A stretch of 64,000 bases of DNA from Mycobacterium sp. (lineage in GTDB: Bacteria; Actinomycetota; Actinomycetes; Mycobacteriales; Mycobacteriaceae): NCBI GenBank assembly GCA_020438845.1, contig JAGQTV010000019.1:16767-80766 (forward strand), read 5' to 3'. Positions 7,938 through 44,689 of the stretch are shown here, piece after piece; the first letter of the stretch is position 1, and every line of letters starts with the position of its first letter. A program made the translations under genes and the position numbers. A model generated the notes under the pieces. It worked only from the letters and a program-made list of their open reading frames with translations, was not told where the DNA came from and made no database searches.

Positions 7938-8395
7938 GAATGCCTCCCCGCTGCCTTCGATTTCGGCTGCACCAGCCGACTACCACTCCAGGCACCGAGA
8001 TTGGCAGACGAGGTCTGCATCAGCCCGGCCGTCGGGGCGGACTCAGCAATCTCCGCCGGCCGTACATGGCCCGGTTTGCCGGTCTTGGGTGTCAGCACCC
8101 AGATGATTCCGTCCTCGGCCAACGGAGCGATAGCATCCATCAACCGATCCACCAGGTCACCGTCGTCGTTGCGCCACCACAGCAGCACGACGTCGACCAC
8201 CTCGTCGGAGTCCTCGTCGAGCAGCTCGCTGCCGCACGCTTCCTCGACGTCGGCGCGGATGTCGTCGTCGGAGTCTTGGTCCCAGCCCAACTCCTGGACG
8301 ATCTGATCCTGGTGGATGCCCAGCCTCTGGGCATAGTTGCGACCGCTGTCATCCGCGGCGACCACCGTCGGGTTCTCCCTTCTCTTCCCTGACAT
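7934..8395 (-). CDS. DUF3052-family conserved actinobacterial protein
   Basis: The 153-residue acidic protein contains the conserved block [18 protein letters not shown], a strongly acidic middle ([21 protein letters not shown]) and a C-terminal [24 protein letters not shown] segment. These are characteristic of DUF3052 proteins found next to ahpE in mycobacteria (Rv2239c equivalent). The function is unknown. There is no signal peptide or membrane helix. Its stop overlaps the ahpE start, which suggests a linked role, possibly in redox stress; that link is inferred from coupling alone. Confidence 0.85.
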
Positions 8396-8437
8396 GACTG
8401 TCCGGCTTGATCGTTTATCGTCGCACGATTCGCGCGT

Positions 8438-9031
8438 CTATTTGTAGGTCGCGTCACACAAACGCAAAGCCTTGGACCGGGCGTCGTTGAGCCGACCGAT
8501 CACTTGATTGAATTGCCGTGGGGGCGCGTGGCTGGTGATCGCGTCTGCGGTCGTGTGGGCATTGTCCACCCAGGCTGCGAATGCGTCTTTGAGATCTTCC
8601 GGCACGATGTCTTCGACGCTGCTCTCCACCGCATCGGCACTCTGTTCCAGTGCGTCGACCGCTGGACCCTCGGTAGTGGCGATGTCGCCGCCCTCCCGGT
8701 TGAAGGCGTTGACATAGGAATTGACCGCATCGATCGCGTCAGAGCTTGTGGTCGCCAACGTCTCGCACGTGTTATGCACGGCCTGCGTGGTCAGAGAAGC
8801 CTGCCGCTCCGACTCACGCGCGCTGGAACTGGCCACCGATTGGGACGACGACACCGAAATCGAGGTGCGGTAGGCCGGCGCGTCGGAGGCGTTGACGGTC
8901 GCATCACCCCCTGTGACGGAGGTGCAGCCGACGGCAGTCAGGGCCAGCGACGCCAGCAGAGCGCAGCCGCCGGCCAGCGGGCCACCGAACCCTCCGAACA
9001 AGCGAAGCCGGCGAGGACTTCTGATCAGCAC
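8438..9031 (-). CDS. Putative lipoprotein of unknown function
   Basis: The 197-residue product begins with an Arg-rich n-region (RSPRRLRLFGG), a hydrophobic core and a lipobox LTAVGC (Cys36), so it is probably a lipid-anchored envelope protein. The mature part is Ser/Thr/Asp-rich and mainly helical (SDAIDAVNSYVNAFN, VDALEQSADAVESSVED). It has two Cys, in NTCETL and LRLCDA, that may pair. By position between the DUF3052 gene and aceE it corresponds to Rv2240c of M. tuberculosis. No enzymatic motif is visible. It is divergent from aceE with about 160 bp for promoters. Confidence 0.75.
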   Translation of the reverse strand: MLIRSPRRLRLFGGFGGPLAGGCALLASLALTAVGCTSVTGGDATVNASDAPAYRTSISVSSSQSVASSSARESERQASLTTQAVHNTCETLATTSSDAIDAVNSYVNAFNREGGDIATTEGPAVDALEQSADAVESSVEDIVPEDLKDAFAAWVDNAHTTADAITSHAPPRQFNQVIGRLNDARSKALRLCDATYK

Positions 9032-9191
9032 ACCGGCAGACGTTACCGGGTCGAAGCCACCTTGACTGTTTCAGTCCCGGGCGAAGCGGCAATTTTCATC
9101 GGAGGCCTTGTGACGCACTCTGCGCCGCGAGGGACGCGAGTGGGGCACGATAGGGCCACATGCTTTGACACGAGTCACCTAGGAGCGGAAG

Positions 9192-29750: not shown

Positions 29751-29783
29751 GATGCCGGACTCGTGAGATGTCAGACTCCAGAG

Positions 29784-31040
29784 ATGTCGGACACTGACGT
29801 CACGGACGCCACCCCCCTGCTGCAACCGGCCGAGGGGCTGCCGGATCTTTCCACCAGCGCCGACGAAATCGCCCGCGCTGCAGAGAAGCTGACCTCGGGC
29901 AGCGGCCCGTTCGCCATCGATGCCGAGCGCGCCTCGGGCTTCCGGTACTCCAACCGCGCCTACCTGATCCAGATCCGGCGCAGCGGAGCCGGAACGGTAC
30001 TGATCGACCCGGTGAATCATGGCGGGAGCCCGATCGACGTTCTTGCTCCTATTGCCGAGGTCCTAGCCGAGGACGAGTGGATTCTGCACGCGGCGGACCA
30101 GGATCTGCCGTGCCTGGCCGAGGTGGGGCTGCGTCCGCCCGCCTTGTACGACACCGAATTGGCCGGTCGCCTGGCCGGCTTCGAGCGGGTGAACCTCGCT
30201 GCCATGGTCCAGCGCTTACTCGGCCTGGGGTTGGCCAAGGGCCACGGCGCGGCCGACTGGTCCAAACGCCCCCTGCCTTCGGCCTGGCTCAACTATGCCG
30301 CACTCGATGTCGAGGTCTTGATCGAACTCAGGGCGGAAATCGCGCAGGTGCTGGAATCTCAAGGAAAAACCACGTGGGCCGCGGAGGAATTCGAGCACCT
30401 GCGTGGTGTTACGCCCAATCCCACCAGGAGAGACCTGTGGCGGCGGACATCGGGCATCCACAAGGTCAAGACCAGGGCCGGATTGGTGGCAGTGCGCGAG
30501 ATGTGGACGGTCCGTGATCAGATCGCCCGTCGCCGCGACATCTCCCCGGGCTGGATCCTGCCCGATGCCGCCATAGTCGCCGCCGCACAGGCCGACCCCA
30601 CGACGATCGACGAGCTGACGGCCCTGCCGATCTTCGGCGGCAGCAAGCAGCGGCGCAACGCAGAGGTATGGCTGAATGCACTGGCAGCGGCGCGGATCAG
30701 CAACGAACCGATCGACATCGGAGAGCCCAACGATGGTCCGCCGCCTCCGATGCGGTGGGCAAAGCGCAGGCCCGAGGCTGCCGCCCGCCTGGAAGCGGCC
30801 CGTTCAGCGCTCGCCGAGTTGTCACAGCGAATCGGCATTCCCACCGAAAACCTGGTGTCGCCGGAGTTGGTGCGTCGACTGTGCTGGGACTGGAAGGATG
30901 CAGGGGACCCCGATGGACGAGACATCGCCGCGGCGATCGAGGACATTCTGCGCGACGGCGGTGCCCGCGACTGGCAGCGCGCGCTGGTCGGGCCGGAACT
31001 AACGCGGGCACTCAGCCCCGGAATGGAGTTGAGCCAGTGA
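29784..31040 (+). CDS. RNase D-like 3'-5' exonuclease with HRDC domains
   Basis: The 418-residue protein has an N-terminal DEDD exonuclease domain. The Exo I acidic pair is in FAIDAERASG, Exo II in WILHAADQDLPCLAEVG, and Exo III in WLNYAALDVEVLIELR. Two C-terminal helical HRDC regions follow. RNase D trims the 3' ends of structured RNAs such as tRNA precursors. The ATG at 29784 was preferred over a GTG seven codons upstream. It corresponds to Rv2681. Its stop overlaps the start of the next gene (GTGA). In M. tuberculosis dxs1 follows; here a membrane protein follows instead. Confidence 0.88.
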   Translation: MSDTDVTDATPLLQPAEGLPDLSTSADEIARAAEKLTSGSGPFAIDAERASGFRYSNRAYLIQIRRSGAGTVLIDPVNHGGSPIDVLAPIAEVLAEDEWILHAADQDLPCLAEVGLRPPALYDTELAGRLAGFERVNLAAMVQRLLGLGLAKGHGAADWSKRPLPSAWLNYAALDVEVLIELRAEIAQVLESQGKTTWAAEEFEHLRGVTPNPTRRDLWRRTSGIHKVKTRAGLVAVREMWTVRDQIARRRDISPGWILPDAAIVAAAQADPTTIDELTALPIFGGSKQRRNAEVWLNALAAARISNEPIDIGEPNDGPPPPMRWAKRRPEAAARLEAARSALAELSQRIGIPTENLVSPELVRRLCWDWKDAGDPDGRDIAAAIEDILRDGGARDWQRALVGPELTRALSPGMELSQ

Positions 31041-32617: not shown

Positions 32618-35407
32618 TCATTGACCTGGTCGCTCGCAGTTTTCGATCGCCTTGTCGGTATAGACGCGGTAGCCCAATTCGGGTTTGTAGCCGTGAACTT
32701 CCGGAGTGTCCAGTTCACGTAGGAAGGTCAGGATCTGACGGCTGAACACCTGCCCGGGCACCAGCACCGGGAACCCAGGCGGATACGGCGTCACGAACGT
32801 CGCTGAGACCACATCAGTCCCGGCATCCAACTTCGCCTCGATCTCCTCGGCGCAGAGGTATTCGCAGTTGGCATCGTCGTAGGCGAGGTAGAACGCGCGG
32901 CGCACATCACCTTCGGGTGTTTCGACTGCTCCGGAAAAGTCACGGAACGCCGGGTGGAAGCCGCTGAAGTCCGGCAGCGGAGCCGAACTGGTGGTCAGGC
33001 GCCGCACTTTCTCCTCGAATCGTGCCCGCTCGCCGAGGCCCATCTCCGATGTGCGCTCGTCGAGATCGCTGGCGATCTTGACCAGGACCTCCACCAGCAG
33101 GGCCACCGAACTGCGGGTGGTGCCGATATTGGTCATGAACAGCACCGTGTTGCGCGAGGTTTTGTTGATCTGCACGCCGTGTCGGTCCATCAACTGACTT
33201 CGCTTGAACTCGTCGCCGTTGTAACCGGTCCGGCCGATCGACAGGGTGATCCGCGAGGGATCCAGGGCGAACTCGTCGGATTCCCACGCCCGCATCATTT
33301 TTCGCAACCCGGACCGCAGCGGTTGTCCGATGTGGCTGGCACGGAAATCGTCGGGGATCAGGTCCGAGGTGCGCAGGCACGCCATGTACTTGCTCAGCAG
33401 CGGGTGATTGTCCACGGCGTCGCGCAGCTGCATGGCGTTCTCGATCTGCTGAGCCACCAACTCGACGCCCTCCAGCGCAACCTGACGGCGACCGAGATCC
33501 AGGGAGGCGAGGATCTGGTAGTTCGGCGACGTCGACGTGTGAGCCATGTAGGCCTCATGGAACGGCTCGGACACCTTCTGGACGAAATCCTGGTCGAAGA
33601 CATGGATCATCGAACCCTGTCGCAGCGATGTCAGCGTCTTGTGCGTCGACTGGGTCGCATAGACCCGGACTCGCGCTCGGGCCGGGTCCGGGTATAGCCG
33701 CCGGTCGAGCAGTTCGGCGTCGGTGGGCGGCTGCTCGGCGTCGCGGGCCAACTGCTCGGCGTATGCGCGGGCGCTTTCGGGGGCTTTCAGCCGTTCCCGG
33801 ATCTTGTGGGCGGACTCCATTGCGGTGCGGGAGCGCAGCACCGGGTGAAAGCGCGCGAAGGCGAACCAGGCCTCGTCCCACAGGAAGACGAGATCCGGTT
33901 TGATGGCCAGGCATTCCTCCATGACTCGCTGGACGTCATAGACGATTCCGTCGAACGTGCAGTTCGTCAGCGCAATCATCTTGACGCGGTCCAGCTTTCC
34001 GGCCCGCCGTAGCTCCAGCAGTTGCGCCTTGATCTCCCGCAATGGGACCGCGCCGTACATGGTGTAGTCGTTGAGCGGGTAGGCCTCCAGGTAGACGACC
34101 TGGGCGCCGCCCAGCATCATCCCGTAATGATGTGACTGGTGGCAGTTTCGGTCGAGCAGCACGATGTCGCCGGGTGCCACCAGGGACTGGGTGACGATCT
34201 TGTTTGCCGTCGAGGTTCCGTTGGTGACGAAGTAGGTCTGCCGGGATCCGAAGGTCGAGGCGGCGAGTTCCTGAGCCTCACGCAGCGGTCCCGTCGGCTC
34301 CAGCAGCGAGTCCAGACCGCCGCAGGTGGCCGACGTTTCGGCCATGAAGATGTCGAGTCCGTAGAAGTCGAGCATGTCTTTGATCCAGTGCGACTTGACG
34401 ATCGACTTGCCCTGCGAGATGGGCAGCGCGTGAAAGACACCGGTGGGGCGCTGGCTGTATTGCTTGAGCGCGCTGAAGAACGGGGTGCGGTACCGGCTCG
34501 CGATGTCACGCAGCAGGCTCAGATGGAGCTCGAGCAGGCCTTCGCGCGCGTGGAACACGCGCCGGAAGTCCTTGCCGAACCGGCCCGCGACGTTTTCCAC
34601 GTCGACCTCGGTCATCAGGTACAAGTCGAGTTCGGGCCTCAGGTCGTGTAGTGCCTCGGCGAGAAGGGCGGACCTCTCGTCGCGCGAGGCGTCCTCCCCG
34701 ATTCGCTCGGCGACGACCGTGTCCGCGAAGTCCGCCAAATCGGAGAGGTCACGGGTGGCCTGAATCCCGAAGCGCCGGCCGAGCACGACGGCTTGAAGAT
34801 TGGTGTTGAGCCGAGCGGCGATCAGCGCCTCCTCCGCGTTGGACACCACCACGATCTCGTAGATGAAGTCGTCGTCCGGGCGGCGCCACCCGTGCGCCTC
34901 CTTGCGCAGCTTGCGTTCCTGTTCTTCGGTCAGCGCTTCGACGGCCAACACCTCGAAGTACAACGGTGCGCGCTTTCCGGAGGGACGACCGTCGAGCGAG
35001 TGCACCTCGACGAAGAGATCGTCATCCTGGGCGGTGGAGGTCTCGGGGTCCGCCGATCGGTAGGACTCGTGGGTCAGCGCGTGGTTGATAGCCACTACCC
35101 CCTGCGCGAACTTGTCGTAGTCGCCGGCGGCAAACATGCGGTTGAGCTTGGCGAAGCGCGTACCGCCCGGATATGCCCAGTACGGCTCGACCGGTGACAA
35201 GTCGTTCAGCACTTCCAGGCACACCGCTTGGATCGCTTCGGTGGGCCGACCGGCCGCGGCGAGCCGCGCTAGCTGGTCGGAGGCATCTTCCAGTCGGCAC
35301 CAGGCATCTGCCCTGAGTTGCCCGACACTGTTGTAAACGTGTGCATTCGCAAGCAATGTGCGCCCCTTTGCGGCATCGGCTTTGTTCGCCAGCCTAACCG
35401 TTGCCAA
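32618..35407 (-). CDS. Orn/Lys/Arg-type PLP-dependent amino acid decarboxylase
   Basis: The 929-residue protein has the size and layout of the large group III decarboxylases: an N-terminal wing/linker region, a fold-type I PLP core and a C-terminal domain. The Schiff-base Lys is in TQSTHKTLTSLRQGSMIH. Other core blocks are YFVTNGTSTANKIVTQ, LLDRNCHQSHHYGM and LVFLWDEAWFAF, whose Asp contacts the PLP ring. Which amino acid is used cannot be decided. It resembles Rv2531c of M. tuberculosis. A TTG at 35407 is the apparent start; a GTG about 23 codons later is an alternative. It borders the ESX-1-type module. Confidence 0.87.
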   Translation of the reverse strand: MATVRLANKADAAKGRTLLANAHVYNSVGQLRADAWCRLEDASDQLARLAAAGRPTEAIQAVCLEVLNDLSPVEPYWAYPGGTRFAKLNRMFAAGDYDKFAQGVVAINHALTHESYRSADPETSTAQDDDLFVEVHSLDGRPSGKRAPLYFEVLAVEALTEEQERKLRKEAHGWRRPDDDFIYEIVVVSNAEEALIAARLNTNLQAVVLGRRFGIQATRDLSDLADFADTVVAERIGEDASRDERSALLAEALHDLRPELDLYLMTEVDVENVAGRFGKDFRRVFHAREGLLELHLSLLRDIASRYRTPFFSALKQYSQRPTGVFHALPISQGKSIVKSHWIKDMLDFYGLDIFMAETSATCGGLDSLLEPTGPLREAQELAASTFGSRQTYFVTNGTSTANKIVTQSLVAPGDIVLLDRNCHQSHHYGMMLGGAQVVYLEAYPLNDYTMYGAVPLREIKAQLLELRRAGKLDRVKMIALTNCTFDGIVYDVQRVMEECLAIKPDLVFLWDEAWFAFARFHPVLRSRTAMESAHKIRERLKAPESARAYAEQLARDAEQPPTDAELLDRRLYPDPARARVRVYATQSTHKTLTSLRQGSMIHVFDQDFVQKVSEPFHEAYMAHTSTSPNYQILASLDLGRRQVALEGVELVAQQIENAMQLRDAVDNHPLLSKYMACLRTSDLIPDDFRASHIGQPLRSGLRKMMRAWESDEFALDPSRITLSIGRTGYNGDEFKRSQLMDRHGVQINKTSRNTVLFMTNIGTTRSSVALLVEVLVKIASDLDERTSEMGLGERARFEEKVRRLTTSSAPLPDFSGFHPAFRDFSGAVETPEGDVRRAFYLAYDDANCEYLCAEEIEAKLDAGTDVVSATFVTPYPPGFPVLVPGQVFSRQILTFLRELDTPEVHGYKPELGYRVYTDKAIENCERPGQ

Positions 35408-35503
35408 CTGCCGTCGAGGCCGCTCTGTTGCCTTGGTCTGCCCTCAACCATCACCAACGGCACCAGCACCAGCGGCCAAGGGTTGGCCAGTACGGGTTTC
35501 GCC

Positions 35504-36181
35504 TCAGCTCACCACGCCGGTGTCGGCCGGGCGTTCCCCTGGATCTTCCTCGCCTGGGATCAGCTCACGATCCGATACCGATTGCTCGCTTTGCGCACCA
35601 TCGTCGGGAGTCTTTCCGAACTGTCCCGCCAGTTGAGCGACCTGCTGCACGGCCCCCTGAGTGCCCTGCATCATGCTCTGCGGTACAGATCCGGCCATCT
35701 GGGCTAGCTGCGCGGGAATCTGGCCGGCCTGCTGTGCCATTTGCATCGGCGTGCCCATCATCTGGCCCAGTCCGCCCATCTGGCCCACTCCGCCCATCTG
35801 GCCCAGTCCGCCCGCTTTGCCTGCCGCCCCAGGGGCACCTGAGGCCGAGGCGGCCGAACCTCCCCCGCCAATGCCCTGGGAGCCGCTATTGCCGAAGTCG
35901 TGCCGTGCTGCCTTGGCAGCCAAGGCCTCGTCGGTTGATGCGTACCTCTGTCCTGCCGCCCCGACGTTCTGCGCGGTGGTCAGCGCGTCGGTCTTGATAG
36001 CGGGCAAAGCCGCCATCGGTGCTTCGATCTCCACAGAACCGTTGCCGATGGCCGTTGACAGCGGATCGGATCCGGACACCGACAAGGGTGGCGGAACAAC
36101 GGGAATCTCCGCGGCAGCCGCCGCCAGAGATGCACTGGCCGTACCCAGGAGATCCGTGTCGACGATCAATGGCTGTGTCAC
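35504..36181 (-). CDS. espJ: ESX-1 secretion-associated protein EspJ
   Basis: The 225-residue protein starts MTQPLIVDTDLLGTASASLA, then PLSVSGSDPLSTAI, and has a helical middle with YASTDEALAAKA. These match the EspJ (Rv3878) pattern, though the protein is shorter than the roughly 280-residue M. tuberculosis version. A low-complexity segment of GGLGQM/GGVGQM repeats and a Gln-rich helix region (QQAGQIPAQLAQMAG) fill the C-terminal half. It is the last gene of the module, 10 bp after eccD1. Its role in secretion is not defined. It ends about 96 bp from the decarboxylase start. Confidence 0.82.
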   Translation of the reverse strand: MTQPLIVDTDLLGTASASLAAAAAEIPVVPPPLSVSGSDPLSTAIGNGSVEIEAPMAALPAIKTDALTTAQNVGAAGQRYASTDEALAAKAARHDFGNSGSQGIGGGGSAASASGAPGAAGKAGGLGQMGGVGQMGGLGQMMGTPMQMAQQAGQIPAQLAQMAGSVPQSMMQGTQGAVQQVAQLAGQFGKTPDDGAQSEQSVSDRELIPGEEDPGERPADTGVVS

Positions 36182-36191
36182 GAGAAATCCT

Positions 36192-37724
36192 CTAAAACCG
36201 GATGTTTCGCAACATGTCGTACACCCCGGCGATCCACAACAGCAGCGGGATCACGGCCGCAATCGCCACGCCGTCGACAAGTTCCAGAACCCGCCGCATC
36301 ACCGGCGACACCCGGCGCACGCCTTCCGTGGCGCCGACCAGGACCAGAGCGGCGACGGCCGTCACAACGAATACGGCAACCGATAGCCACGCCCAATTCG
36401 GGAACCAGAGGCACAGTTTCGCCAGCACGCCGATCGGCACTGCCACCGATGCGCCCAACAGCCACCACGCGCACCACCGTTCAGCGTAAAGCCGCGCCCG
36501 AAACGCACAGATTACCGTGACAAGCCCGGCCACGACCAGGCTGTGCACCAGGAAGTGCCCTCGGACGACGACGGCGATCGCGCCAAGAGTCAGAATCGAG
36601 CAACCCGCCGCGACGAAGCCGATGAGCAGCCGCTTGGCCAAATCACTGCGTTCGGTGAGCCGTTCGGCAGATTCCGGGACGGAGGCGATGATGGCCCGCC
36701 AGGTCGAGGACTCCTCGTCCAGGGCCTGCGAGTCGGTCACCGGATCCAGCAGTTCCTCGTGAGTGACCGACTCACCGGGGGCAGGGATCGGGGGAAGTGC
36801 GATCCGGGCGACCGCGACCGTCAGCTTCGCCGCGTTGGTCACCACGATCAGACCAGCCGCGACCGCTGCAGCGGGAACCCAGTTCTGCCAGCCGTATCCA
36901 TAGGCGATCGCCGCGGCGGTGATCACGGTCGCCACGGTGGCCACATATGCCGCCCCCTCGGCCCGCCCGCGAGGACCTCCACGGGTGAAGATGGCAATCG
37001 CAGCCAGTACCGCTGCAGCAGCGGCCAATTGGGGCGCACCGGCCGAGGTGAACTCACGGGGAAGTGGCACGGCCGTGGCGGCCCCTGCGGCGAGCAAGGA
37101 CGCGGCCGCGATCAGCAGACTCTCGGAGAAGCCGGCGTGGCGGTACCTGACCCAGGCCTGCCAACTTCCGGCCAAGGCGATGATTCCCAGGACCAACAGC
37201 CCGACCGCCCACCACCACCCCTGTCCACTGCTCAGCCAGCTGACAAAGGACACCACAGCGGCCGAGGTCGCAACCACCGGGATCGCGATGCCGAGGAAGA
37301 GGTTCAGCGCCGAACGGTCGAACTGGGGGGACTCGTCGAGCACCGCGATCGCGTCGATCACGTCCTCGACCAGGGGTCGGTAGCGTTCGGTACGACTGGT
37401 CGAAACCAGGGTCAGTAGCGAGCCGTCGACTATCCCGGCCTCATCCAACGAACGGTTCCGTTTCAGCGGCGGCGCACCCGGCCTGGCGAACGACCAGACG
37501 CCTTGAGCCTTGAAATCGAACCCCGCCAGTATCTCCGCCGGTGTGCCCTCCAGGAGTTCCTCCAGCACGCCGACCGTTTCGTCGATATAAGCCTCGACGG
37601 GTGCGGCGGCGGGCAGCACGAGATCGGTCATCCGGCGCCCGGTGAGGATCGTCACCCGGGTAGTGGCCGGGCGATCGGGCCGCGACGACTTTCCGGATGC
37701 AGGAGCCGACGCCGGGGCGCTCAC
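36192..37724 (-). CDS. eccD1: Type VII secretion channel protein EccD1
   Basis: EccD forms the membrane vestibule of the type VII secretion complex. The 510-residue protein has an N-terminal ubiquitin-like domain (TRVTILTGRRMTDLVLP to near residue 115) and then about eleven membrane helices (for example GWWWAVGLLVLGIIALAGSW and IAIPVVATSAAVVSFV). It resembles EccD1 (Rv3877) in position and layout. The start overlaps the espI stop by 4 bp (GTGA). Its obligate partners EccB, EccC and EccE are not encoded in the window, so it must either join a complex encoded elsewhere or be an extra copy. Confidence 0.9.
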   Translation of the reverse strand: MSAPASAPASGKSSRPDRPATTRVTILTGRRMTDLVLPAAAPVEAYIDETVGVLEELLEGTPAEILAGFDFKAQGVWSFARPGAPPLKRNRSLDEAGIVDGSLLTLVSTSRTERYRPLVEDVIDAIAVLDESPQFDRSALNLFLGIAIPVVATSAAVVSFVSWLSSGQGWWWAVGLLVLGIIALAGSWQAWVRYRHAGFSESLLIAAASLLAAGAATAVPLPREFTSAGAPQLAAAAAVLAAIAIFTRGGPRGRAEGAAYVATVATVITAAAIAYGYGWQNWVPAAAVAAGLIVVTNAAKLTVAVARIALPPIPAPGESVTHEELLDPVTDSQALDEESSTWRAIIASVPESAERLTERSDLAKRLLIGFVAAGCSILTLGAIAVVVRGHFLVHSLVVAGLVTVICAFRARLYAERWCAWWLLGASVAVPIGVLAKLCLWFPNWAWLSVAVFVVTAVAALVLVGATEGVRRVSPVMRRVLELVDGVAIAAVIPLLLWIAGVYDMLRNIRF

Positions 37725-39202
37725 CGCCGCTCCAGCCTCTCGAAGTCATCCGAAAGCGCAGCCGCGAGCTCGGTGACTCTGCGCTGGTAGACCGGACCGA
37801 GCAGATCGAGGTCGATCGCAGTACCAGCAGCGATGTGTTTGTCGTAGGGCAGGACGACCACCCGGCCGGGGCTGACATGACGCTGGAACTGCTGGACCAG
37901 ATCGTCGACGTCGACATTGGGCTTGCCGGGAACGGTGTGGTTGATCACGACACAAGTCCGGCCGAGCAGATGCTGGTAGCCGTTCTGGCGCAGCCAGTCC
38001 ATCGTGACCGCCGCCTGGCGCGCTCCGTCGATCGATGCGCTGGCCACGATCACCAGACCGGAAACGGTACCCAGCACCGCGCGTGCCGCCGGGTGGAAAA
38101 GACCGGCGCCACAGTCGGCGAGCACCAGGTTGTAGTAACGGGAGACGATATTGGTGGCCGCTTCCCACTCCTCGGGCCCGAATGGGCGGCGCGCAACGCT
38201 GTACTCATCGGAGGCCAACACCTCCAGATTGGACCGATTCATACTGGTGTAGGCGCGGATATCGTTGTAGCGAGCCAGGTTTCGATCGGCGAGTAGATCG
38301 GCGACGCTCGCTGCGGACTCCCGCCCGCAACGATCAGCCAGGTTCCCGGCATCCGGATCTGCGTCCACTGCCAGAATCCGGTCGCCCCGCACTTTGCTCA
38401 GCGTTGATCCCAGCACCACTGTCAGCGCGGTCTTGCCGACTCCGCCTTTAAGCCCGAAAACCCCGATCTGGTACGAATCCCGCGCATTTCGCCGGATTCG
38501 GTTGTGCAGATCCATCTCGTAGATCTCGTCCGGCGACGGGCCCAGGTTGATCCGGGTCAGCCGATACAGAACATGGCGCCAGCCACGCTTGGACGGCATC
38601 TTCACCGAGGTCTTGACATCGACGTGCGACAACGCATCGATCGCACGGTGGTTTCCGATGGTCGACGCCGAGGTCTGCTCGGGCGCACTGACCATGGCTT
38701 CGGTCGCCGGCCAGACGTTGACGATCTCGGTTCGACCGTCGGCGTGACGTTCGGCCGACGGCACCCGGACGGGCCGGTTCAGCACGTCGGATGCCGCGGC
38801 GGTGGGGACCACGGTCGTGGCCTCCGTGTCGCCCTCGGGTGCGCCCCACTCCTGGCTCGGCGCACCTGAGACGGCGGGACCGTGCGGTCGCGGAGTCGGA
38901 CCCCCGGGCGGCGGCATTCCAGGCCATGACCGGGCCGGTGGACGCGCCGGCGGCGGGGGTCCGGGCGGAAGGCCCGTGTTCCGCTGCGGTTCGGGAGTCT
39001 CGGCTTGCCGTACCCGACTCGTCACCGGCATCGGTCCTGCTCCCCCGCCCGCGGCGGGTTCCCAGTCGCGCTGCGGGAAAGACCCCCTTGCCACCGGGGT
39101 GTCGGGCACATGCGCGGACCCCTCATCCTCGACTGGCGGCGAGTCGTCGTCGCCGCCGTCCGACGGTTTGAAAAGACTTTCGTAGTCGGCCGGCACAAGC
39201 AC
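37721..39202 (-). CDS. espI: ESX-1 secretion-associated ParA/MinD-like ATPase EspI
   Basis: The 493-residue protein has a disordered Pro-rich N-terminal half (PPGPPPPARPPARSWPGMPP) and a C-terminal ParA/MinD-like domain. The deviant Walker A is GLKGGVGKTALT, with ILAVDADPDAGNLADR and VLADCGAGLFHPAARA following. The linker block GWRHVLYRLTRINLGPSPDE is shared with EspI (Rv3876). In M. tuberculosis EspI has been linked to ESX-1 regulation under low ATP. The GTG at 39202 is used; a second GTG at 39196 is possible. A 137-bp gap with a long inverted repeat separates it from esxA, unlike the tight spacing downstream. Confidence 0.9.
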   Translation of the reverse strand: MLVPADYESLFKPSDGGDDDSPPVEDEGSAHVPDTPVARGSFPQRDWEPAAGGGAGPMPVTSRVRQAETPEPQRNTGLPPGPPPPARPPARSWPGMPPPGGPTPRPHGPAVSGAPSQEWGAPEGDTEATTVVPTAAASDVLNRPVRVPSAERHADGRTEIVNVWPATEAMVSAPEQTSASTIGNHRAIDALSHVDVKTSVKMPSKRGWRHVLYRLTRINLGPSPDEIYEMDLHNRIRRNARDSYQIGVFGLKGGVGKTALTVVLGSTLSKVRGDRILAVDADPDAGNLADRCGRESAASVADLLADRNLARYNDIRAYTSMNRSNLEVLASDEYSVARRPFGPEEWEAATNIVSRYYNLVLADCGAGLFHPAARAVLGTVSGLVIVASASIDGARQAAVTMDWLRQNGYQHLLGRTCVVINHTVPGKPNVDVDDLVQQFQRHVSPGRVVVLPYDKHIAAGTAIDLDLLGPVYQRRVTELAAALSDDFERLERR

Positions 39203-39257
39203 CTCTCTCAGTCACTCATGGCTCAACGGGTCGACCGAACGGTCTGATCCGCAACGT

Positions 39258-39322
39258 GAAGTTGGCGGGTCCGGCACAGGGTTCCTGCGACCAGGGTTCC
39301 TGCGAACGTTCCCGCCAACTTC
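39258..39322. terminator. 12-bp inverted repeat enclosing a tandem duplication between esxA and espI
   Basis: GAAGTTGGCGGG (39258-39269) is a perfect complement of CCCGCCAACTTC (39311-39322), with a 41-base loop. The loop contains two copies of a 15-bp step (AGGGTTCCTGCGA repeated). It begins 17 bp after the esxA stop in the direction of transcription. There is no U-run, so it is better viewed as a processing, stability or attenuation element than as a classical intrinsic terminator. Confidence 0.6.
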
Positions 39323-39338
39323 GCCCAGGGCCATTGAA

Positions 39339-39626
39339 TCAGCCGAACATTCCCGTCACGCCGGATTCAGTCTGCGCCATCGTCTGGCCGGCCTCGCTGA
39401 TGGTCTGGGCCAGGTTCTGCAGAGCCGAGTTCAGTTCCGCGGAGGTGCTGTCCCAACGTTGCTGCACGGCCTGGTAGGCCTCCGAGCCCGAACCGCCCCA
39501 CACCGAGGCCAGCGCCGCCAGCGAGGCCTTGCCCTCGTCGAGCAACCCGTGCGTGGTCGACACTGCACCGTGAATCTCCGAGGCGCCGCCCTCGATCCCG
39601 GCGAAATTCCACAGCTGTTCCGACAT
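39339..39626 (-). CDS. esxA: WXG100 protein EsxA (ESAT-6)
   Basis: The 95-residue protein matches ESAT-6 along its length: [20 protein letters not shown], the [20 protein letters not shown] turn with the WxG motif at Trp43, and the end [19 protein letters not shown]. Two helices form a hairpin that pairs with EsxB; the complex is exported by ESX-1 and is tied to phagosomal membrane damage in pathogens. It lies 70 bp after esxB in the same direction, with a purine-rich ribosome site. This is a true EsxA rather than one of the many esx paralogues. Confidence 0.96.
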
Positions 39627-39696
39627 TGTTAGTTCTCCTTTGATTTCCGTTGTCCGTGTTCGTATTTCAGTGTTCAGAAGTGGTAATGGAAGATGA

Positions 39697-39999
39697 TCAG
39701 ATGTTCATTGCCGACTGCAGCGACGAGGTCTGGTCCTCGTCGGTGGAGGTGTACTGCACGCCGGCGTGGCTGATGTTGTTGGAGATGTCGTTGAGCTCCT
39801 GAACCTGACGGTTCGCGGCCTCTTGGAACCGGAGCAGCGCCGCCTGGGCAGCCTGGCCGGCCTGGCCGTGCCACTGGCCAGCCAATGAACCGGCGGTGCC
39901 CTCGACCTGAGCGATCACTGCCTTCAGCTCACCCGAGATCCTCTCGAAATTGCCGGCCTCCTTGGCGAGGACAGCAGCATCGGTATTCATCTGTGCCAT
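39697..39999 (-). CDS. esxB: WXG100 protein EsxB (CFP-10)
   Basis: The 100-residue protein aligns with CFP-10 throughout: [24 protein letters not shown] with Trp43, [17 protein letters not shown]. It has a C-terminal tail with the YxxxD/E export signal (YTSTDED). It is the chaperone-like partner of EsxA and carries the signal recognised by the EccC ATPase. It follows PPE68 by about 110 bp. Since EccC is not encoded nearby, export relies on a system elsewhere. The C-terminal residues (LQSAMNI) differ from CFP-10, which may alter EccC recognition. Confidence 0.96.
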
Positions 40000-40108
40000 T
40001 GCTGTTTTCCTTTTTCTTTTCCTGTGTCCTCACCATCGGTGTGGCGAGTCCCCCGGCCCGGTCGGGCGGGAAGTCCTTGTGCGCCAATACGGTCACCCCT
40101 GATCGCGG

Positions 40109-41482
40109 TCACCAGTCGTCGGCGTCTTCTTCTTCGGTGTCGTACTCCAGCGCATCGGGCCCACCGAGGCTCTGGCGTACCCCACCACTGGTGCCCCGGT
40201 GACCCAGACCACCCATCGGGCCGGCGCCCACCCCACCTGCATTGTTCGCGGCCACCGGAGCCAAGCCCGTTGCCGTTGAACCGGCTGCCGCGCCAGCGGC
40301 CACCGATGCCGGGTTCAGACCCGATTCGCCGACTCCGAGCAGCCCGGCCAGCATCGGCGTGCGCGCACCAAGGCCGCCGGCACCCGGCAGCGAGGCCCCT
40401 CGCACCAGACCGGCACCAGCTGAAGGGCCACCGCCTCCGGCGAGCGGGTGGGTCGAGAAAGGACTGGCACCGAGCAAACCGACCTGCGCACCCCGGCCTG
40501 AGGCTCCTGCCAGCGACGTTCCGGCTTGGTCACCGTGGCCCATCTGGCTGAACAACGACGAGACTTGCTGCAACGGCTGGGTCAGCTGCTGCATGGGACT
40601 CTGCAACAGTTGGCCGGCCTGTTGCGGGACCTGTCCGATCTGCGAGGCCACCTGGCTCATCATCTGCATGCCCTGTTGCCCGAGTTGATCCTGGGGCTGC
40701 TGGGCGGTGCGGCTGTTCGCGGCGGTTTCGCCGGCCCGCTCCGCCTTGTTCTCGCCCAGGGCAGCAGCCTGGTTCGCAGTGGAGGCGACCCGGCCCACCT
40801 GCAGTGCGGTCGACTCCGCCGTCGCCTGGGCGGCAACGTGAGCGATGGCGGCCTCCCGTGCCGCGGCACCGGGGGCCATGGCGGCCGCCGCGGCCACCCC
40901 TGCTGCACCCACCGCCTCGGCGACCCCGGGAATGACGATCGGCGGCAGCGGCGGCACCGGCTCGAACGTGGTGTTGAGCAGGGTCTCGGCATGATAGGCG
41001 TCCATAGCGGCAGCTGCTTGGTTCCACATCCGGACGAAGTAGTCCTCTTCGTTCAGGCCGATCGGCACCGTGTTGATCCCGAGAAAATTGGTGGCCTCGA
41101 GGACAGCATGGGTGACGTGGTTCTCCTCGATCTCAGGAATCGGCGGAGTCTCGGCCAAGGCCGTGGCGTGGGCGGTGGCCTGAGCCGCGGCCTGCAGCGC
41201 ACGCTTGTGCGCCTGAAGACTCGTCGTCCGCATCCACAGCACCGCCGGGGTGATCGCGGAGATCGCCCGTTCGCTGGCGGCGCCGGTCCACGTTGCTGCG
41301 AGCTGGGCCAGCGAGGCAGCCAACTCGTCGGCCTGGACCTCCAGTGACAGGGCGAAGGCCTCCCACGCCGATGCCGCCTGCAGCATCGGCGCCGACCCCG
41401 CCCCCAGCATCAGCCGCGAAGTGTTGATCTCCGGCGGCAGGGCATGCCAGGTCGGCATTACCGGTATCGGTAGGCCAGCCAT
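40109..41482 (-). CDS. ppe68: PPE family protein PPE68
   Basis: The 457-residue protein starts with an N-terminal PPE domain (ALPPEINTSRLMLGAGSAPM) with the WxG-like AWTGAASE turn and the NFLGINTVPIGLNEEDYFVRMW block that marks PPE68. The C-terminal half contains QQLTQPLQQVSSLFSQMG, MQMMSQVASQIGQ and [15 protein letters not shown], then an acidic tail (YDTEEEDADDW). These are the landmarks of M. tuberculosis PPE68. It forms a heterodimer with the PE protein encoded 60 bp upstream. An Ala-rich insert near residues 180-240 makes it longer than the M. tuberculosis protein. Confidence 0.94.
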   Translation of the reverse strand: MAGLPIPVMPTWHALPPEINTSRLMLGAGSAPMLQAASAWEAFALSLEVQADELAASLAQLAATWTGAASERAISAITPAVLWMRTTSLQAHKRALQAAAQATAHATALAETPPIPEIEENHVTHAVLEATNFLGINTVPIGLNEEDYFVRMWNQAAAAMDAYHAETLLNTTFEPVPPLPPIVIPGVAEAVGAAGVAAAAAMAPGAAAREAAIAHVAAQATAESTALQVGRVASTANQAAALGENKAERAGETAANSRTAQQPQDQLGQQGMQMMSQVASQIGQVPQQAGQLLQSPMQQLTQPLQQVSSLFSQMGHGDQAGTSLAGASGRGAQVGLLGASPFSTHPLAGGGGPSAGAGLVRGASLPGAGGLGARTPMLAGLLGVGESGLNPASVAAGAAAGSTATGLAPVAANNAGGVGAGPMGGLGHRGTSGGVRQSLGGPDALEYDTEEEDADDW

Positions 41483-41542
41483 CTAGTGTTCACCCCCGTC
41501 CTGTCTGGTTCGGATTCTCGGTCGAGCAATGCTGAAGCGCGG

Positions 41543-41839
41543 TCAGCTCAGGATCGAGCCGTGGGCTTCGTCGACTTCGGCGTACGTGGCGGCTACCTCG
41601 ATTACCGCTGCTCCGGCCCTGGTCACCTCTTCCTGGGCGGCTGCATTGACTGCGGTGACCTGAGCGCCTTCGGCGCCGAACGACAGGGCCGCCAGCGCTG
41701 AGACTTCGTCGACGCCCGCCGGCGCCAGTGCGGTGGTAGCGGCGCCGGCCGTCGTGCCGGCGGCGATGCCGCTGGCGCCGTTGGCGACCACCGCTGCCCC
41801 AATGCCCGCTGCAGCCGGATCGTGGCTCATGGGTTCCAT
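41543..41839 (-). CDS. pe35: PE family protein PE35
   Basis: The 98-residue protein is a stand-alone PE domain. MEPMSHDPAAAGIG resembles the N-terminus of PE35 (Rv3872), followed by AGVDEVSALAALSFGAEG and the C-terminal helix GAAVIEVAATYAEVDEAHG with its YxxxD export signal. It pairs with PPE68 and opens the module; in M. tuberculosis PE35 and PPE68 also affect esxBA expression. The ATG at 41839 gives full similarity; a second ATG three codons later is possible. A plausible promoter lies about 90 bp upstream. Confidence 0.93.
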   Translation of the reverse strand: MEPMSHDPAAAGIGAAVVANGASGIAAGTTAGAATTALAPAGVDEVSALAALSFGAEGAQVTAVNAAAQEEVTRAGAAVIEVAATYAEVDEAHGSILS

Positions 41840-41928
41840 GTCGCTTGCCTTTCTGGTCGGTATCCCGGATCGGTATAGCTGCGTGTTCGGTGCCGATTCT
41901 CGACGTATTCACATCGTTCGCACACTTT

Positions 41929-41957
41929 GCTATACCGCATTCTTTAACTTTGCTGAA
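41929..41957 (-). promoter_or_regulatory. Predicted promoter of the ESX-1-type module
   Basis: On the minus strand TTCAGC (41952-41957) is 17 bp from TATAGC (41929-41934). The resulting leader would be about 80 bases before the PE35 ATG. A small inverted repeat, AACTT-N5-AAGTT (41946-41960), overlaps the -35 box and could bind a regulator. The region is visibly more AT-rich than its neighbours. Confidence 0.45.
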
Positions 41958-42047
41958 GTTACGGCTATCAGTCTATCCGGCCCGTGGGAGTGCTCGAGAC
42001 ACTTGTTGGGCGGCGCTCAAGCGAGCAGCCCAGCGGTGCCAATCCGG

Positions 42048-43118
42048 CTAGTAGAGCCGCCCTCGCAACACCACCCGGTCCGGGCGGGACAGCACCTGCG
42101 GCCCGGAACGCGGGTCGGCGTCGAAACAGAGCAAGTCAGCCGATGCGCCGTCGGCCAGGGCAGGCCGGCCCAGCCAGCTCCGGGCATCCCAGCACGCAGC
42201 GCCCAGGGCCTGGCTCGGTGTCATTCCGATCCCCTTGAGCGCCTCAACTTCGTCGGCGATCCGGCCGTGGACCACGGCGCTGCCGGCGTCGCTGCCGGCG
42301 TAGATCGGCACCCCCGCTTCGCGGGCAGCCGCCACCCGCTGGGAGCAACGCGCGTACAGATCCCGCATGTGTGCCGCGTAGAGCGGGAATTTGCTCGCGG
42401 CATCGGCGAATTCGGGGAAATTCTCGATGTTGATCAGTGTGGGCACCAGTGCCGTACCGCCCTCGACCATCATCGCGACGGTATCGTCGGTCAGCCCGGT
42501 GCCGTGCTCGATGCAGTCGATGCCCGCCTTGATCAGACCGGGCAGGGCATCCTCGCCGAAGACGTGCGCGGTCACGCGAGCGCCTTGGGCATGGGCAGCC
42601 GCGACGGCCGCCACCAGGACGTCGTCGGACCACAGCGGAGTCAGGTCGCCGACTGATCGATCTATCCAGTCGCCGACGAGTTTGACCCAGCCGTCGCTGC
42701 GACGGGCTTGTTCGGCCACCGCATCAGGCAGCTGCCATTCGTCTTCCAACTCGACGGCGAAACCCCGCGAATAGCGTTTCGGCCGCGCCAAATGCCTCCC
42801 CGCTCTGATGATCCGGGGCAGATCGTGGCGGGCGTCGAGGCTGCGGGTGTCGATCGGCGACCCGCAATCGCGCAGCAGCAAGGCACCGACCTCGCGTTCG
42901 CGCTCCGCTTGCGCTATTGCCTCGTCGAGCTCGACGCCGCCATGTGGCCCCAAACCCACGTGACAGTGGGCGTCGACAAGACCTGGAATGATCCAGCCGC
43001 CGTCAAAGATGGTCTCCGCACCGCTGACCGGTTCGCTGCGCAGGAGCCCGTCGGAGATCCACCACTCCACCTGCTCGCCGTCGGGCAATCCCCGCCCGCG
43101 AAGGTGGAACGTATTCAC
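42048..43118 (-). CDS. Amidohydrolase-family metal-dependent hydrolase
   Basis: The 356-residue TIM-barrel hydrolase begins with a small beta-domain and the metal motif VDAHCHVG (HxH). It continues with a carbamylated-Lys candidate (WVKLVGDW), RVTAHVFGED and CIEHGTG supplying His ligands, and YAGSDAG giving the catalytic Asp. This is the imidazolonepropionase/prolidase-like branch; the substrate is unknown. It directly follows ffh with a 5-bp gap and corresponds to Rv2915c, so co-transcription with ffh is likely. The ESX-1-type module begins about 210 bp downstream. Confidence 0.88.
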   Translation of the reverse strand: MNTFHLRGRGLPDGEQVEWWISDGLLRSEPVSGAETIFDGGWIIPGLVDAHCHVGLGPHGGVELDEAIAQAEREREVGALLLRDCGSPIDTRSLDARHDLPRIIRAGRHLARPKRYSRGFAVELEDEWQLPDAVAEQARRSDGWVKLVGDWIDRSVGDLTPLWSDDVLVAAVAAAHAQGARVTAHVFGEDALPGLIKAGIDCIEHGTGLTDDTVAMMVEGGTALVPTLINIENFPEFADAASKFPLYAAHMRDLYARCSQRVAAAREAGVPIYAGSDAGSAVVHGRIADEVEALKGIGMTPSQALGAACWDARSWLGRPALADGASADLLCFDADPRSGPQVLSRPDRVVLRGRLY

Positions 43119-43123
43119 CCGCT

Positions 43124-44689
43124 TTAGAACTTGCCTGGGAACTTCAGTTTCGACAGGTCGAAGTCCGCCAGGCCCGGGGGCAGTTCGTTGAGGCCCTCCG
43201 GCATCTGGGAAAGGTCAGGGAATCCAGCAGGCATGCCCGGCATGCCGGCTCCCAACATCGGATTGCGCGCCTTCGGCGGCGTCGGACCGCGACCCCGTTT
43301 GCCTTTCTTGGCGTTCTTGGCGTTTCGTTTGGATGACCGGCGCGCGAACGGCATGCCCATGGCGCCGGCCATCTGCGACATCATCTTTCGGGCCTCAAAG
43401 AAGCGGTCGACAAGCTGGTTGACGTCGGAGACGCTGACCCCGGAGCCATTGGCGATCCGCAGCCGCCGGGAGGCGTTGATGATCTTCGGATCGGCGCGCT
43501 CCTCAGGGGTCATGCCGCGGATGATGGCCTGGATCCGGTCCAGATGGCTGTCGTCCACAGCGGCCAGGGCGTCCTTCATCTGCCCGGCACCCGGCAGCAT
43601 GCCCAGCAGATTGCCGATCGGGCCCATCTTGCGAATCGCCAGCATCTGCTCGAGGAAATCCTCCAGAGTGAGCTCTCCGGAGCCGATCTTGGCCGCGGCC
43701 TCCTCAGCCTTCTTCGCGTCGAAGACCTGCTCGGCCTGCTCGATCAGCGACAGCAGGTCACCCATGCCGAGGATGCGGCTAGCCATGCGGTCGGGGTGGA
43801 AGACGTCGAAGTCGTCCAGCTTTTCACCGGTTGAGGCGAACAGGATCGGTACGCCGGTGATTTCACGGACCGACAGCGCCGCGCCGCCCCGGGCGTCACC
43901 GTCGAGTTTGGTCAGTACGACGCCGGTGAAGCCGACACCGGCACCGAACGCCTCGGCCGTGGCCACGGCGTCCTGGCCGATCATGGCGTCAAGGACGAAC
44001 AGGGTCTCATCGGGCTGCACCGCATCACGGATCGCGGCGGCCTGCGCCATCAGTACGTCGTCGATGCCCAGACGGCCGGCGGTGTCGACGATCATGACGT
44101 CGAAGTGTTTTGCCTTTGCCTCGGCCAGGCCCGCGGCGGCGACGGCGACCGGATCGCCGGGCCCGTAGCCGGCGGTGTCCGGGGAGTCGGCGGCGGTGCC
44201 CGGATGCGGGGCGAAGACGCTGACGCCCGCCCGCTCGCCGACGATCTTGAGTTGGTTGACCGCGCCCGGGCGCTGAAGATCGCAGGCCACCAACAGCGGG
44301 GTGTGCCCCTGGTCGCGCAGCCACTTGGCCAGCTTGCCGGCCAGCGTGGTCTTACCGGCGCCCTGCAGGCCGGCCAGCATGATCACCGTCGGCGGATTCT
44401 TGGCGAAGACCAACTGCCGCGTCTGGCCGCCCAGGATCCCGATGAGTTCCTCGTTGACGATCTTGATGACCTGCTGGGCCGGGTTGAGCGCCCCGGAGAC
44501 CTCGGCCCCCTTTGCCCGTTCCTTGATCTTGGTGATGAAGGCGCGGACGACGGGCAGCGAAACGTCGGCTTCCAGCAGCGCCAGGCGAATCTCGCGGGCG
44601 GTGGCGTCGATGTCGGCGGGGGTCAGCCGGCCCTTGCCGCGCAGGCCGGCCAGTGCCCCGGTGAGCCGATCGGAGAGGGATTCAAACAC
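43124..44689 (-). CDS. ffh: Signal recognition particle protein Ffh
   Basis: Ffh binds 4.5S RNA and signal sequences of nascent membrane proteins and delivers them to FtsY. The 521-residue protein has the N domain, a GTPase G domain with G1 loop GLQGAGKTTLAGKL, the VDTAGR motif (IVDTAGRLGID) and TKLDGDARGGAAL, and then the Met-rich M domain (GNLLGMLPGAGQMKDAL). A Gly/Pro/Met-rich C-terminal tail follows. It starts with GTG at 44689. The receptor gene ftsY lies 7 kb away in the same direction. Confidence 0.96.
   Translation of the reverse strand: MFESLSDRLTGALAGLRGKGRLTPADIDATAREIRLALLEADVSLPVVRAFITKIKERAKGAEVSGALNPAQQVIKIVNEELIGILGGQTRQLVFAKNPPTVIMLAGLQGAGKTTLAGKLAKWLRDQGHTPLLVACDLQRPGAVNQLKIVGERAGVSVFAPHPGTAADSPDTAGYGPGDPVAVAAAGLAEAKAKHFDVMIVDTAGRLGIDDVLMAQAAAIRDAVQPDETLFVLDAMIGQDAVATAEAFGAGVGFTGVVLTKLDGDARGGAALSVREITGVPILFASTGEKLDDFDVFHPDRMASRILGMGDLLSLIEQAEQVFDAKKAEEAAAKIGSGELTLEDFLEQMLAIRKMGPIGNLLGMLPGAGQMKDALAAVDDSHLDRIQAIIRGMTPEERADPKIINASRRLRIANGSGVSVSDVNQLVDRFFEARKMMSQMAGAMGMPFARRSSKRNAKNAKKGKRGRGPTPPKARNPMLGAGMPGMPAGFPDLSQMPEGLNELPPGLADFDLSKLKFPGKF

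What the first reader, a model, noticed from the sequence alone, without database searches (positions are those of the whole stretch)
35504..41839. Stand-alone ESX-1-type module without its secretion core
PE35-PPE68-esxB-esxA-espI-eccD1-espJ are present in exact ESX-1 order and are close relatives of the ESX-1 versions (EsxA, EsxB and PE35 match along their length). Yet eccA, eccB, eccC, eccE, mycP, espG and espK are absent on both sides. The module sits between a decarboxylase gene (35407) and an amidohydrolase-ffh pair (from 42048). The host either has a complete ESX-1 elsewhere and this is a partial duplicate, or the ESX-1 locus was split. A lone EccD1 with substrates could swap into another ESX membrane complex.
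Basis: partly seen in the sequence, partly recalled or inferred. Interest (0 to 1): 0.75.

Follow-up and report, generated by a model that had tools for sequence, protein, structure and literature searches.

The report
Secretion system scattered by chromosome inversions
This mycobacterium still carries the core genes of an ESX-1 protein-export machine, but chromosome rearrangements have split them into three separate places, so the piece in this window only looks orphaned.

Summary
In detail: PE35-PPE68-esxB-esxA-espI-eccD1-espJ lie at 35504-41839 (minus strand), all open, with no core ESX gene elsewhere in the window. The module is not stand-alone. The rest of ESX-1 is on other contigs of the same genome: espG1-eccA1-eccB1-eccCa1-eccCb1 on C25 and mycP1-eccE1-espB-espL on C62. 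EccB1, EccC1, EccD1 and EccE1 are single. In the only close relative found (MAG G061), espG1 to espJ is contiguous. The DNA now joined to each half (amidohydrolase-ffh beside PE35; dacB-like...rpsP beside eccCb1) is also contiguous there. The G000 junctions are therefore reciprocal, between genes, without a shared repeat. An older break, shared with G061, exchanged espJ|espL with rnd|dxs1. Two inversions applied to an assumed ancestral order reproduce the main gene orders and strands. Trees pair both halves with G061 (100/100), and 16 ESX-1 genes tested are open with dN/dS below 0.4. This is probably one ESX-1 encoded in trans at three loci; expression and secretion are untested, and the G000-only junctions rest on one draft assembly. 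ESX-2 in this clade is also split, and ESX-3 and ESX-4 core genes were not found. Breaking an ESX cluster has precedent (EccB2-EccC2, M. avium complex).

The parts
41543..41839 (-). PE35
   Evidence: ORF; PE family PF00934 E 1.9e-11; 89% to G061; YxxxD at residue 86
40109..41482 (-). PPE68
   Evidence: PPE family PF00823 E 2.6e-45; 82-85% to G061
39697..39999 (-). esxB (CFP-10 type), WxG at 43 and C-terminal YxxxD at 83
   Evidence: WXG100; 97% to G061; motifs
39339..39626 (-). esxA (ESAT-6 type), WxG at 43
   Evidence: WXG100; matches 1wa8_B over 1-94, E 2.7e-38; 91% to G061
37721..39202 (-). espI, MinD/ParA-type ATPase
   Evidence: CbiA/AAA_31, MinD-type models below their cut-offs; 76% to G061
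36192..37724 (-). eccD1, membrane channel subunit with YukD head
   Evidence: TIGR03920 390 bits, cut-off 95; tree with G061 100/100
35504..36181 (-). espJ
   Evidence: no family match; 52-60% to the gene at the same place in G061
41840..42007 (-). upstream region of PE35, carried along with PE35; alignable to the eccCb1-PE35 interval of other mycobacteria (GTG..CAC, then CAGCAA)
   Evidence: alignment of 56 intervals, G000 included
42008..42047 (.). junction: about 35-40 bp between the amidohydrolase stop and the first base alignable to the G061 eccCb1-PE35 interval
42048..43118 (-). amidohydrolase (Rv2915c-type, label recalled), the neighbour brought in by the rearrangement
   Evidence: PF01979; next to the dacB-like gene in G061 (L169)
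43124..44689 (-). ffh, second gene of the joined flank
   Evidence: TIGR00959 579 bits; 95% to G061
35408..35503 (.). older junction zone, espJ | decarboxylase-nitroreductase-rnd
   Evidence: in G061 espJ is followed directly by the nitroreductase; rnd and dxs1 are adjacent in G009
32618..35407 (-). Orn/Lys/Arg decarboxylase between espJ and the nitroreductase; not at this place in G061
   Evidence: PF01276 252 bits
31858..32568 (+). nitroreductase, shared flank with G061
   Evidence: PF00881; 92% and same neighbour in G061
29763..31040 (+). ribonuclease D-like gene (rnd), one side of the older breakpoint
   Evidence: exonuclease and HRDC domains, rnd model below its cut-off; 76% to the G009 gene next to dxs1

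Best explanation
[quoted passage not shown] Step 1 (before G000 and G061 parted): a break between espJ and espL was exchanged with a break between rnd and dxs1, sending mycP1-eccE1-espB-espL to dxs1 and leaving espG1...espJ beside the nitroreductase and rnd. Step 2 (seen in G000 only): a break at the eccCb1 stop codon was exchanged with a break between the dacB-like gene and the amidohydrolase, leaving PE35...espJ beside amidohydrolase-ffh and espG1...eccCb1 beside dacB-like...rpsP. Both steps are most simply inversions. Breaks fell between genes and PE35 kept its own upstream region, so the parts can still be made and can assemble in the membrane as one EccB1/Ca1/Cb1/D1/E1-MycP1 machine that exports EsxA-EsxB and PE35-PPE68. 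Shown: gene content, single EccB1/C1/D1/E1, both reciprocal junction pairs, open frames, low dN/dS, common history of both halves. Inferred: that the exchanges were inversions, that the units are expressed, and that the machine secretes.
For: Rest of ESX-1 in G000: EccA1, EccB1, EccCa1, EccCb1, MycP1, EccE1 above curated cut-offs; EspG, EspB and an EspC/EspF-type protein. EccB, EccC, EccD and EccE families give one ESX-1 member each. G061 has eccA1...eccCb1-PE35...espJ contiguous and rpsP-Rv2910c-dacB2-PAP2-dacB-like-amidohydrolase-ffh contiguous (L169; names checked); G000 has the swapped joins. eccCb1 lies upstream of PE35/PPE68 in 62 of 80 named loci; 16 have under 5.5 kb upstream, 2 are exceptions. 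In G009 the rnd and dxs1 matches end 28 bp apart, rnd plus and amidohydrolase minus. The two-inversion model returns the listed genes' orders and strands on C112, C25 and C62. Trees of eccD1 and eccCb1 (61 rows each: G000 and 60 of the 80 loci) pair G000 with G061 at 100/100. No stops; dN/dS 0.047-0.36 over 16 ESX-1 genes. The junctions lie 12 and 22 kb from the nearer contig end; no N; longest exact word shared by 3 kb around each is 14 bp. An independent assembly shows the older break.
Against: G000 is a 118-contig draft; the G000-only junctions are seen in no second assembly (2 of 396 genus genomes hold a close eccD1: G000 and, by contig number and place, G061). The inversion form of step 2 needs ESX-1 and the ffh block in opposite orientation; that is so in 1 (G011) of 8 genomes with both on one contig, and not in 7 (G002, G006, G020, G026, G029, G031, G034). 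The ancestor's state is unknown, as G000 and G061 are drafts. The bare model leaves extra DNA unexplained: about 700 bp with a small ORF on C25 between eccCb1 and the dacB-like gene; the nitroreductase, with no match in the 360 kb of G009 around rnd; the decarboxylase and M19 dipeptidase at the older breaks. espK was not seen, espJ and espB diverge fast (dN/dS 0.25 and 0.36), and low dN/dS between species does not prove function after the split. No expression or secretion data.
Confidence: 0.85

Rival explanations
1. Assembly artefact: C25 and C112 are chimeric contigs, and the strain really has a contiguous ESX-1 as in G061.
For: Draft of 118 contigs with 2.41% contamination; the G000-specific join appears in no other assembly. 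In another draft, G019, eccD1 and eccCb1 are on different contigs, eccD1 1 kb from a contig end, so assemblies do break here.
Against: Two separate chimeras would have to be reciprocal, fall at gene ends, and join sequences without a shared repeat. The older split of the same locus is present in an independent assembly. No duplicate eccB1, eccCb1, esxA or esxB as a mixture of two arrangements would give.
Confidence: 0.08
2. Partial duplicate of ESX-1, like the ESX-6 region of M. marinum, with a full ESX-1 elsewhere.
For: Gene content PE35-PPE68-esxB-esxA resembles such duplicates (ESX-6 as a partial duplicate of ESX-1: abstract start seen).
Against: No second EccD1 and no second esxA over the cut-off; C25 has no PE35-espJ next to eccCb1. 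PE35 and PPE68 copies were not searched genome-wide.
Confidence: 0.03
3. Orphan remnant of a decaying system: ESX-1 is no longer functional, and the rearrangements were tolerated because the machine is dispensable.
For: espK not seen, fast espJ and espB; ESX-1 was deleted in many slow growers (PMC4791881, section read). G004 and G009, whose amidohydrolase is as close to G000 as that of G061 (80-82%), have no eccD1-grade match (best 27-30% identity) and no eccE1 match.
Against: All 16 genes tested are open, and 13 have dN/dS of 0.047-0.13 against 0.059-0.113 for six flanking genes; export motifs intact; PE35 upstream block kept.
Confidence: 0.15
4. Modular reuse: the lone EccD1 plus substrates works with the ESX-2 membrane core.
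For: ESX-2 is the only other type VII system found in this genome.
Against: ESX-2 has its own EccD2, and ESX-1 has its own EccB1/C1/E1; nothing points to exchange.
Confidence: 0.02

Closest known systems
ESX-1 (RD1 region) of mycobacteria
   Same: Same genes and same order within each piece, EccC split into EccCa and EccCb, EsxB with C-terminal YxxxD
   Different: Three separate loci in place of one cluster; breaks after eccCb1 and after espJ; espK not seen
ESX-2 of the M. avium complex, with transposition of EccB2 and EccC2 (PMC4791881, passage)
   Same: An ESX cluster with eccB-eccC moved away from the rest, pieces retained
   Different: That is ESX-2; here ESX-1 is broken after eccC too, and ESX-2 of this clade is broken there as well
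ESX-6 of M. marinum (partial ESX-1 duplicate; abstract start seen)
   Same: PE35-PPE68-esxB-esxA away from the core (gene content of ESX-6 recalled)
   Different: Here no second copy of esxA or EccD1 was found, and espI-eccD1-espJ are included
RD1-type deletions (BCG, M. microti; PMC4791881 section) and the espG1-espI-eccD1 layout in M. hodleri and sp. GA-1285
   Same: ESX-1 fragment lacking neighbours
   Different: There genes are missing at the locus; here they are relocated

Membership tests
[quoted passage not shown]
   all above curated cut-offs; EccCa1 and EccCb1 are separate ORFs on C25
[quoted passage not shown]
   YxxxD/E in EsxB, PE35 and PPE68, none in EsxA
[quoted passage not shown]
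   EspG, EspI, EspB, EspL-like and EspJ present; EspK not seen beside the pieces, genome not searched for it
[quoted passage not shown]
   three contigs with unrelated flanks on both sides
[quoted passage not shown]
   needs culture
ESX-6-like partial duplicate | second, complete ESX-1 in the genome | tested here: not met
   one ESX-1-type EccB, EccC, EccD, EccE
RD1-like deletion remnant | core genes absent from the genome | tested here: not met
   core found on C25 and C62
Chromosomal inversion | reciprocal junction pairs against an outgroup with both loci intact | tested here: met
   step 2 against G061; step 1 against rnd-dxs1 of G009 and the usual ESX-1 order
Chromosomal inversion | loci in the required relative orientation in the ancestor | tested here: inconclusive
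   rnd/dxs1 versus ffh block fits in G009; ESX-1 versus ffh block fits in 1 of 8 genomes

The most novel reading that the evidence does not exclude
A mycobacterial lineage runs on only two type VII systems, ESX-1 and ESX-2, both encoded in trans from scattered loci, after losing ESX-3 and ESX-4. Both clusters broke at the same functional joint, between the EccC motor and the PE-PPE-Esx substrate unit. Substrate-plus-EccD units would then be free-standing, independently regulated modules, and ESX-1 or ESX-2 would have taken over the metal-uptake role of ESX-3.
Probability: 0.15. Interest if true: 0.7.

Novelty: new variant of a known kind. Interest (0 to 1): 0.42.

Why it matters
It is a natural case in which ESX-1 genes stay open and constrained although the cluster is cut into three separate units, which bears on whether cluster linkage or co-transcription is needed for type VII secretion. 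It also warns that locus-by-locus annotation, or presence calls based on an intact RD1-like cluster, would score this genome wrongly. If the apparent lack of ESX-3 and ESX-4 holds, the clade would be a natural test of how a mycobacterium manages iron without ESX-3.

Tried and rejected
Duplicate hypothesis: rejected on one ESX-1-type EccB, EccC, EccD and EccE and one esxA; copies of eccA1, mycP1, espG1, espB, PE35 and PPE68 were looked for only in the 0.22 Mb of G000 that I hold. First labelling of the second system as ESX-3: rejected, because its gene order ends in eccA and its EccC ATPase-3 domain is closest to the solved EccC2 (6jd5, 238 bits over 259 residues, against 114 for EccC5 and 52 for EccC3 domains). 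Over the full length the best solved match is EccC5 (588 bits), but no full-length EccC2 appears in that list. Its EccD is 59% like that of G009 and 47% like those of G026 and G029, against 27-30% for the other EccD listed apart from G061 and a second piece of the G009 gene; the layouts of G009 and G026 were read, that of G029 was not. A simple transposition of PE35-espJ alone: rejected, because it would leave eccCb1 next to the old downstream genes and not next to the dacB-like gene. A repeat-mediated exchange: no shared repeat found. Search for a second genome with the G000-type junction: no further close relative. Survey of ESX-3 by EccC3: 174 of 198 genus genomes matched at E <= 1e-180, G000 did not. 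Only 3 candidates per genome were scored there, so the 24 misses are not all proof of absence; the G000 statement rests. Papers: searches listed no report of ESX-1 split this way; only PMC4791881 was opened (passages, section 7); the others were seen as listings and abstract starts. No structure prediction was run, as it would not separate the rivals.
Full report
What is there. The window lies at C112:16767-80766 of a 4.53 Mb, 118-contig genome, 99.78% complete by the tool's figure. Nothing else in the window matches the ESX-1 or ESX-2 proteins of this genome. To the right, amidohydrolase, ffh, glnD, a P-II protein, amt and smc (ftsY read by eye) follow the order I recall for Rv2915c-Rv2922c of M. 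tuberculosis. To the left are a decarboxylase, a nitroreductase and a ribonuclease D-like gene.

The core is elsewhere. Family searches of the same genome find two EccD, two EccB, two EccE over the cut-off, and two EccC loci apart from an FtsK-like protein; one of each is ESX-1-type. On C25 lie an EspC/EspF-type gene, a helix-turn-helix protein, espG1, eccA1, eccB1, eccCa1 and eccCb1. On C62 lie mycP1, eccE1, espB and an espL-like gene, followed by an M19 dipeptidase, another gene and dxs1. With the window piece this is an ESX-1 gene set with all membrane components. espK was not seen. Copy number was tested genome-wide only for EccB, EccC, EccD, EccE and WXG100 proteins.

The comparison that settles it. 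The closest record to this eccD1 in the genome collection is a MAG labelled Loclat (L022, here G061), 87% identical; the next are 70% or less. In a draw of 396 genomes of the genus, 2 hold an eccD1 at E <= 1e-222: G000, and G372, whose contig number and position match G061. In G061 the run eccA1-eccB1-eccCa1-eccCb1-PE35-PPE68-esxB-esxA-espI-eccD1-espJ is contiguous, preceded by espG1. Another G061 contig reads rpsP-Rv2910c-dacB2-PAP2-dacB-like-amidohydrolase-ffh (L169; families). All 14 other relatives read at this place have amidohydrolase-ffh with a dacB-type gene on the other side, some with genes between. G000 has the four ends exchanged: eccCb1 | dacB-like...rpsP on C25, and ffh-amidohydrolase | PE35...espJ on C112.

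The breakpoints. On C25, similarity to the G061 eccCb1-PE35 interval stops at the eccCb1 stop codon. On C112 it starts about 35-40 bp beyond the amidohydrolase stop codon and runs into PE35. The block upstream of PE35 that recurs in an alignment of 56 eccCb1-PE35 intervals (G000 included) is present in G000. The junction regions share no BLAST match and no exact word longer than 14 bp within 3 kb. About 700 bp on C25 between eccCb1 and the dacB-like gene, with a small ORF without family match, has no counterpart in the G061 stretches tested. Neither junction is near a contig end, and the window, L102 and L103 hold no N.

An older break. In G061 espJ faces the nitroreductase and rnd, as in G000 except that G000 has a decarboxylase between. 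In both, mycP1-eccE1-espB-espL lies towards dxs1 on another contig (L228). In G009 the rnd and dxs1 matches are convergent and end 28 bp apart. So an espJ|espL break was exchanged with a rnd|dxs1 break before the two lineages parted. The nitroreductase has no match in the 360 kb of G009 around rnd, so it came from elsewhere or from the ESX-1 side.

Model. From an assumed order with rnd+ dxs1-, then rpsP-...amidohydrolase- ffh-, then ESX-1 plus, one inversion (rnd^dxs1 with espJ^espL) and a second (PE35^eccCb1 with amidohydrolase^dacB-like) yield the order and strand of the listed genes on C112, C25 and C62. The model left out the nitroreductase, decarboxylase, dipeptidase and small C25 ORF. 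The rnd/dxs1 and ffh orientation is that of G009 and, from memory, M. tuberculosis. Against this, ESX-1 and the ffh block run the same way in 7 of the 8 genomes for which searches give both on one contig (opposite in G011). The ancestor's state is inferred, and extra steps cannot be excluded.

How unusual. In the 80 named eccD1 loci, eccCb1 lies upstream of the PE/PPE genes in 62 (one, L094, on a weak fragment); 16 have less than 5.5 kb upstream; 2 (L042, L050) have espG1-espI-eccD1 with the genes between missing. Of the 16 genomes I gave, 13 have an eccCb1 of at least 70% identity. In 11 of these a copy lies on one contig with eccD1, a few kb apart; in G019 they are on different contigs, with eccD1 1 kb from an end; in G000 they are apart. 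Separation of eccE1-mycP1 is less remarkable: of 58 loci with at least 9.9 kb downstream only 28 show eccE1, and in G011 it lies about 70 kb from eccD1.

Do the halves belong together, and are they kept? Trees of eccD1 and eccCb1 on the same 61 rows (G000 and the 60 of 80 loci with both genes at 85% coverage) place G000 with G061 at 100/100 on a long stem. Between G000 and G061 all 16 ESX-1 genes tested lack internal stops. dN/dS is 0.047-0.13 for 13 of them, 0.19 for esxA, 0.25 for espJ and 0.36 for espB, against 0.059-0.113 for six flanking genes (my own Nei-Gojobori script, several dS values near or above 1). EsxB and PE35 keep YxxxD. This is selection since the species parted, not proof of function since the split.

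Mechanism. The genes of each piece that are transcribed together stay together in the normal reading direction, so the proteins can meet in the membrane. By the known architecture of ESX systems (established knowledge, not tested here), EccB, EccC, EccD, EccE and MycP form the channel, and EccCb recognises the C-terminal signal of EsxB. Expression, assembly and secretion are inferred.

The second system. C110 holds eccB2-eccC2, and C1 holds PE36-PPE69-two esx genes-espG2-eccD2-mycP2-eccE2-eccA2. The EccC ATPase-3 domain is of EccC2 type. In G061 eccC2 has the same succinic semialdehyde dehydrogenase as next recognised gene, and eccD2...eccA2 is on another contig, while G009 and G026 have the cluster whole. 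So ESX-2 of this clade is also cut between eccC and PE; whether that break is reciprocal was not tested. A transposition of EccB2 and EccC2 is in print for the M. avium complex (PMC4791881, passage). ESX-3 and ESX-4 core genes were not found in G000 nor, by EccC, in G061, while the same search finds further EccC loci in G004 and G009. PMC4791881 states that ESX-3 was present in all mycobacteria it studied except M. chubuense.

Novelty and verdict. Observation confirmed; 'split locus' right; 'partial duplicate' not supported, and no evidence for an EccD1 swap. It is a new arrangement of a known system. Six paper searches listed no report of ESX-1 split in this way; the library lacks most subscription papers.

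Noticed in passing
G000 C110 (L104 9661-15239) and C1 (L105 2489-11899); G061 L229, L230: ESX-2-type cluster also split between eccC2 and PE36 in G000, with the same eccC2 neighbour in G061; whole in G009 and G026.
   Followed up: partly
whole genome G000; G061: No ESX-3 or ESX-4 core genes found: only two EccB, two EccC, two EccD, two EccE in G000, and two EccC in G061.
   Followed up: partly
L108 2055-2933 (G000 C49) and L107 6069-6905 (G000 C86): Two EsxB-like WXG100 heads (64% and 47% identical to esxB) fused to C-terminal extensions of about 180 residues with proline-rich stretches; possible ESX-1 substrates.
   Followed up: partly
L050 (M. hodleri DSM 44183) and L042 (Mycobacterium sp. 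GA-1285), around 7900-11500: espG1 is followed by espI-eccD1, with eccA1 to esxA missing at the locus; G035, which by contig number and position is M. hodleri, has no close eccCb1 (best 38%). Looks like a natural RD1-like deletion.
   Followed up: partly
G002, single-contig 4.03 Mb genome, L244 2921-9666 and L243: An eccD-mycP-eccE-eccA set without eccB or eccC seen in that 20-kb stretch; its EccC matches are ESX-1 and one in L243 that looks like ESX-4 by gene order (label recalled).
   Followed up: partly
window 39339-39999: dS between G000 and G061 is lower in esxA and esxB (0.35, 0.43) than in PE35, PPE68, espI and eccD1 (0.76-0.98); ffh is 0.55.
   Followed up: no
window 41840-42007 and 55 other eccCb1-PE35 intervals: Recurring block with GTG..CAC followed by CAGCAA upstream of PE35, a candidate regulatory site.
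   Followed up: no
window 32618-35407; L103 15326-17240: Genes at the older breakpoints in G000 but not at the same place in G061: a decarboxylase beside espJ, and an M19 dipeptidase plus a 244-residue protein beside espL.
   Followed up: partly
L102 15574-15972: Small ORF, read by eye as a secreted protein with internal repeats, lies in the C25 junction; no family match and no match in the G061 stretches tested.
   Followed up: partly
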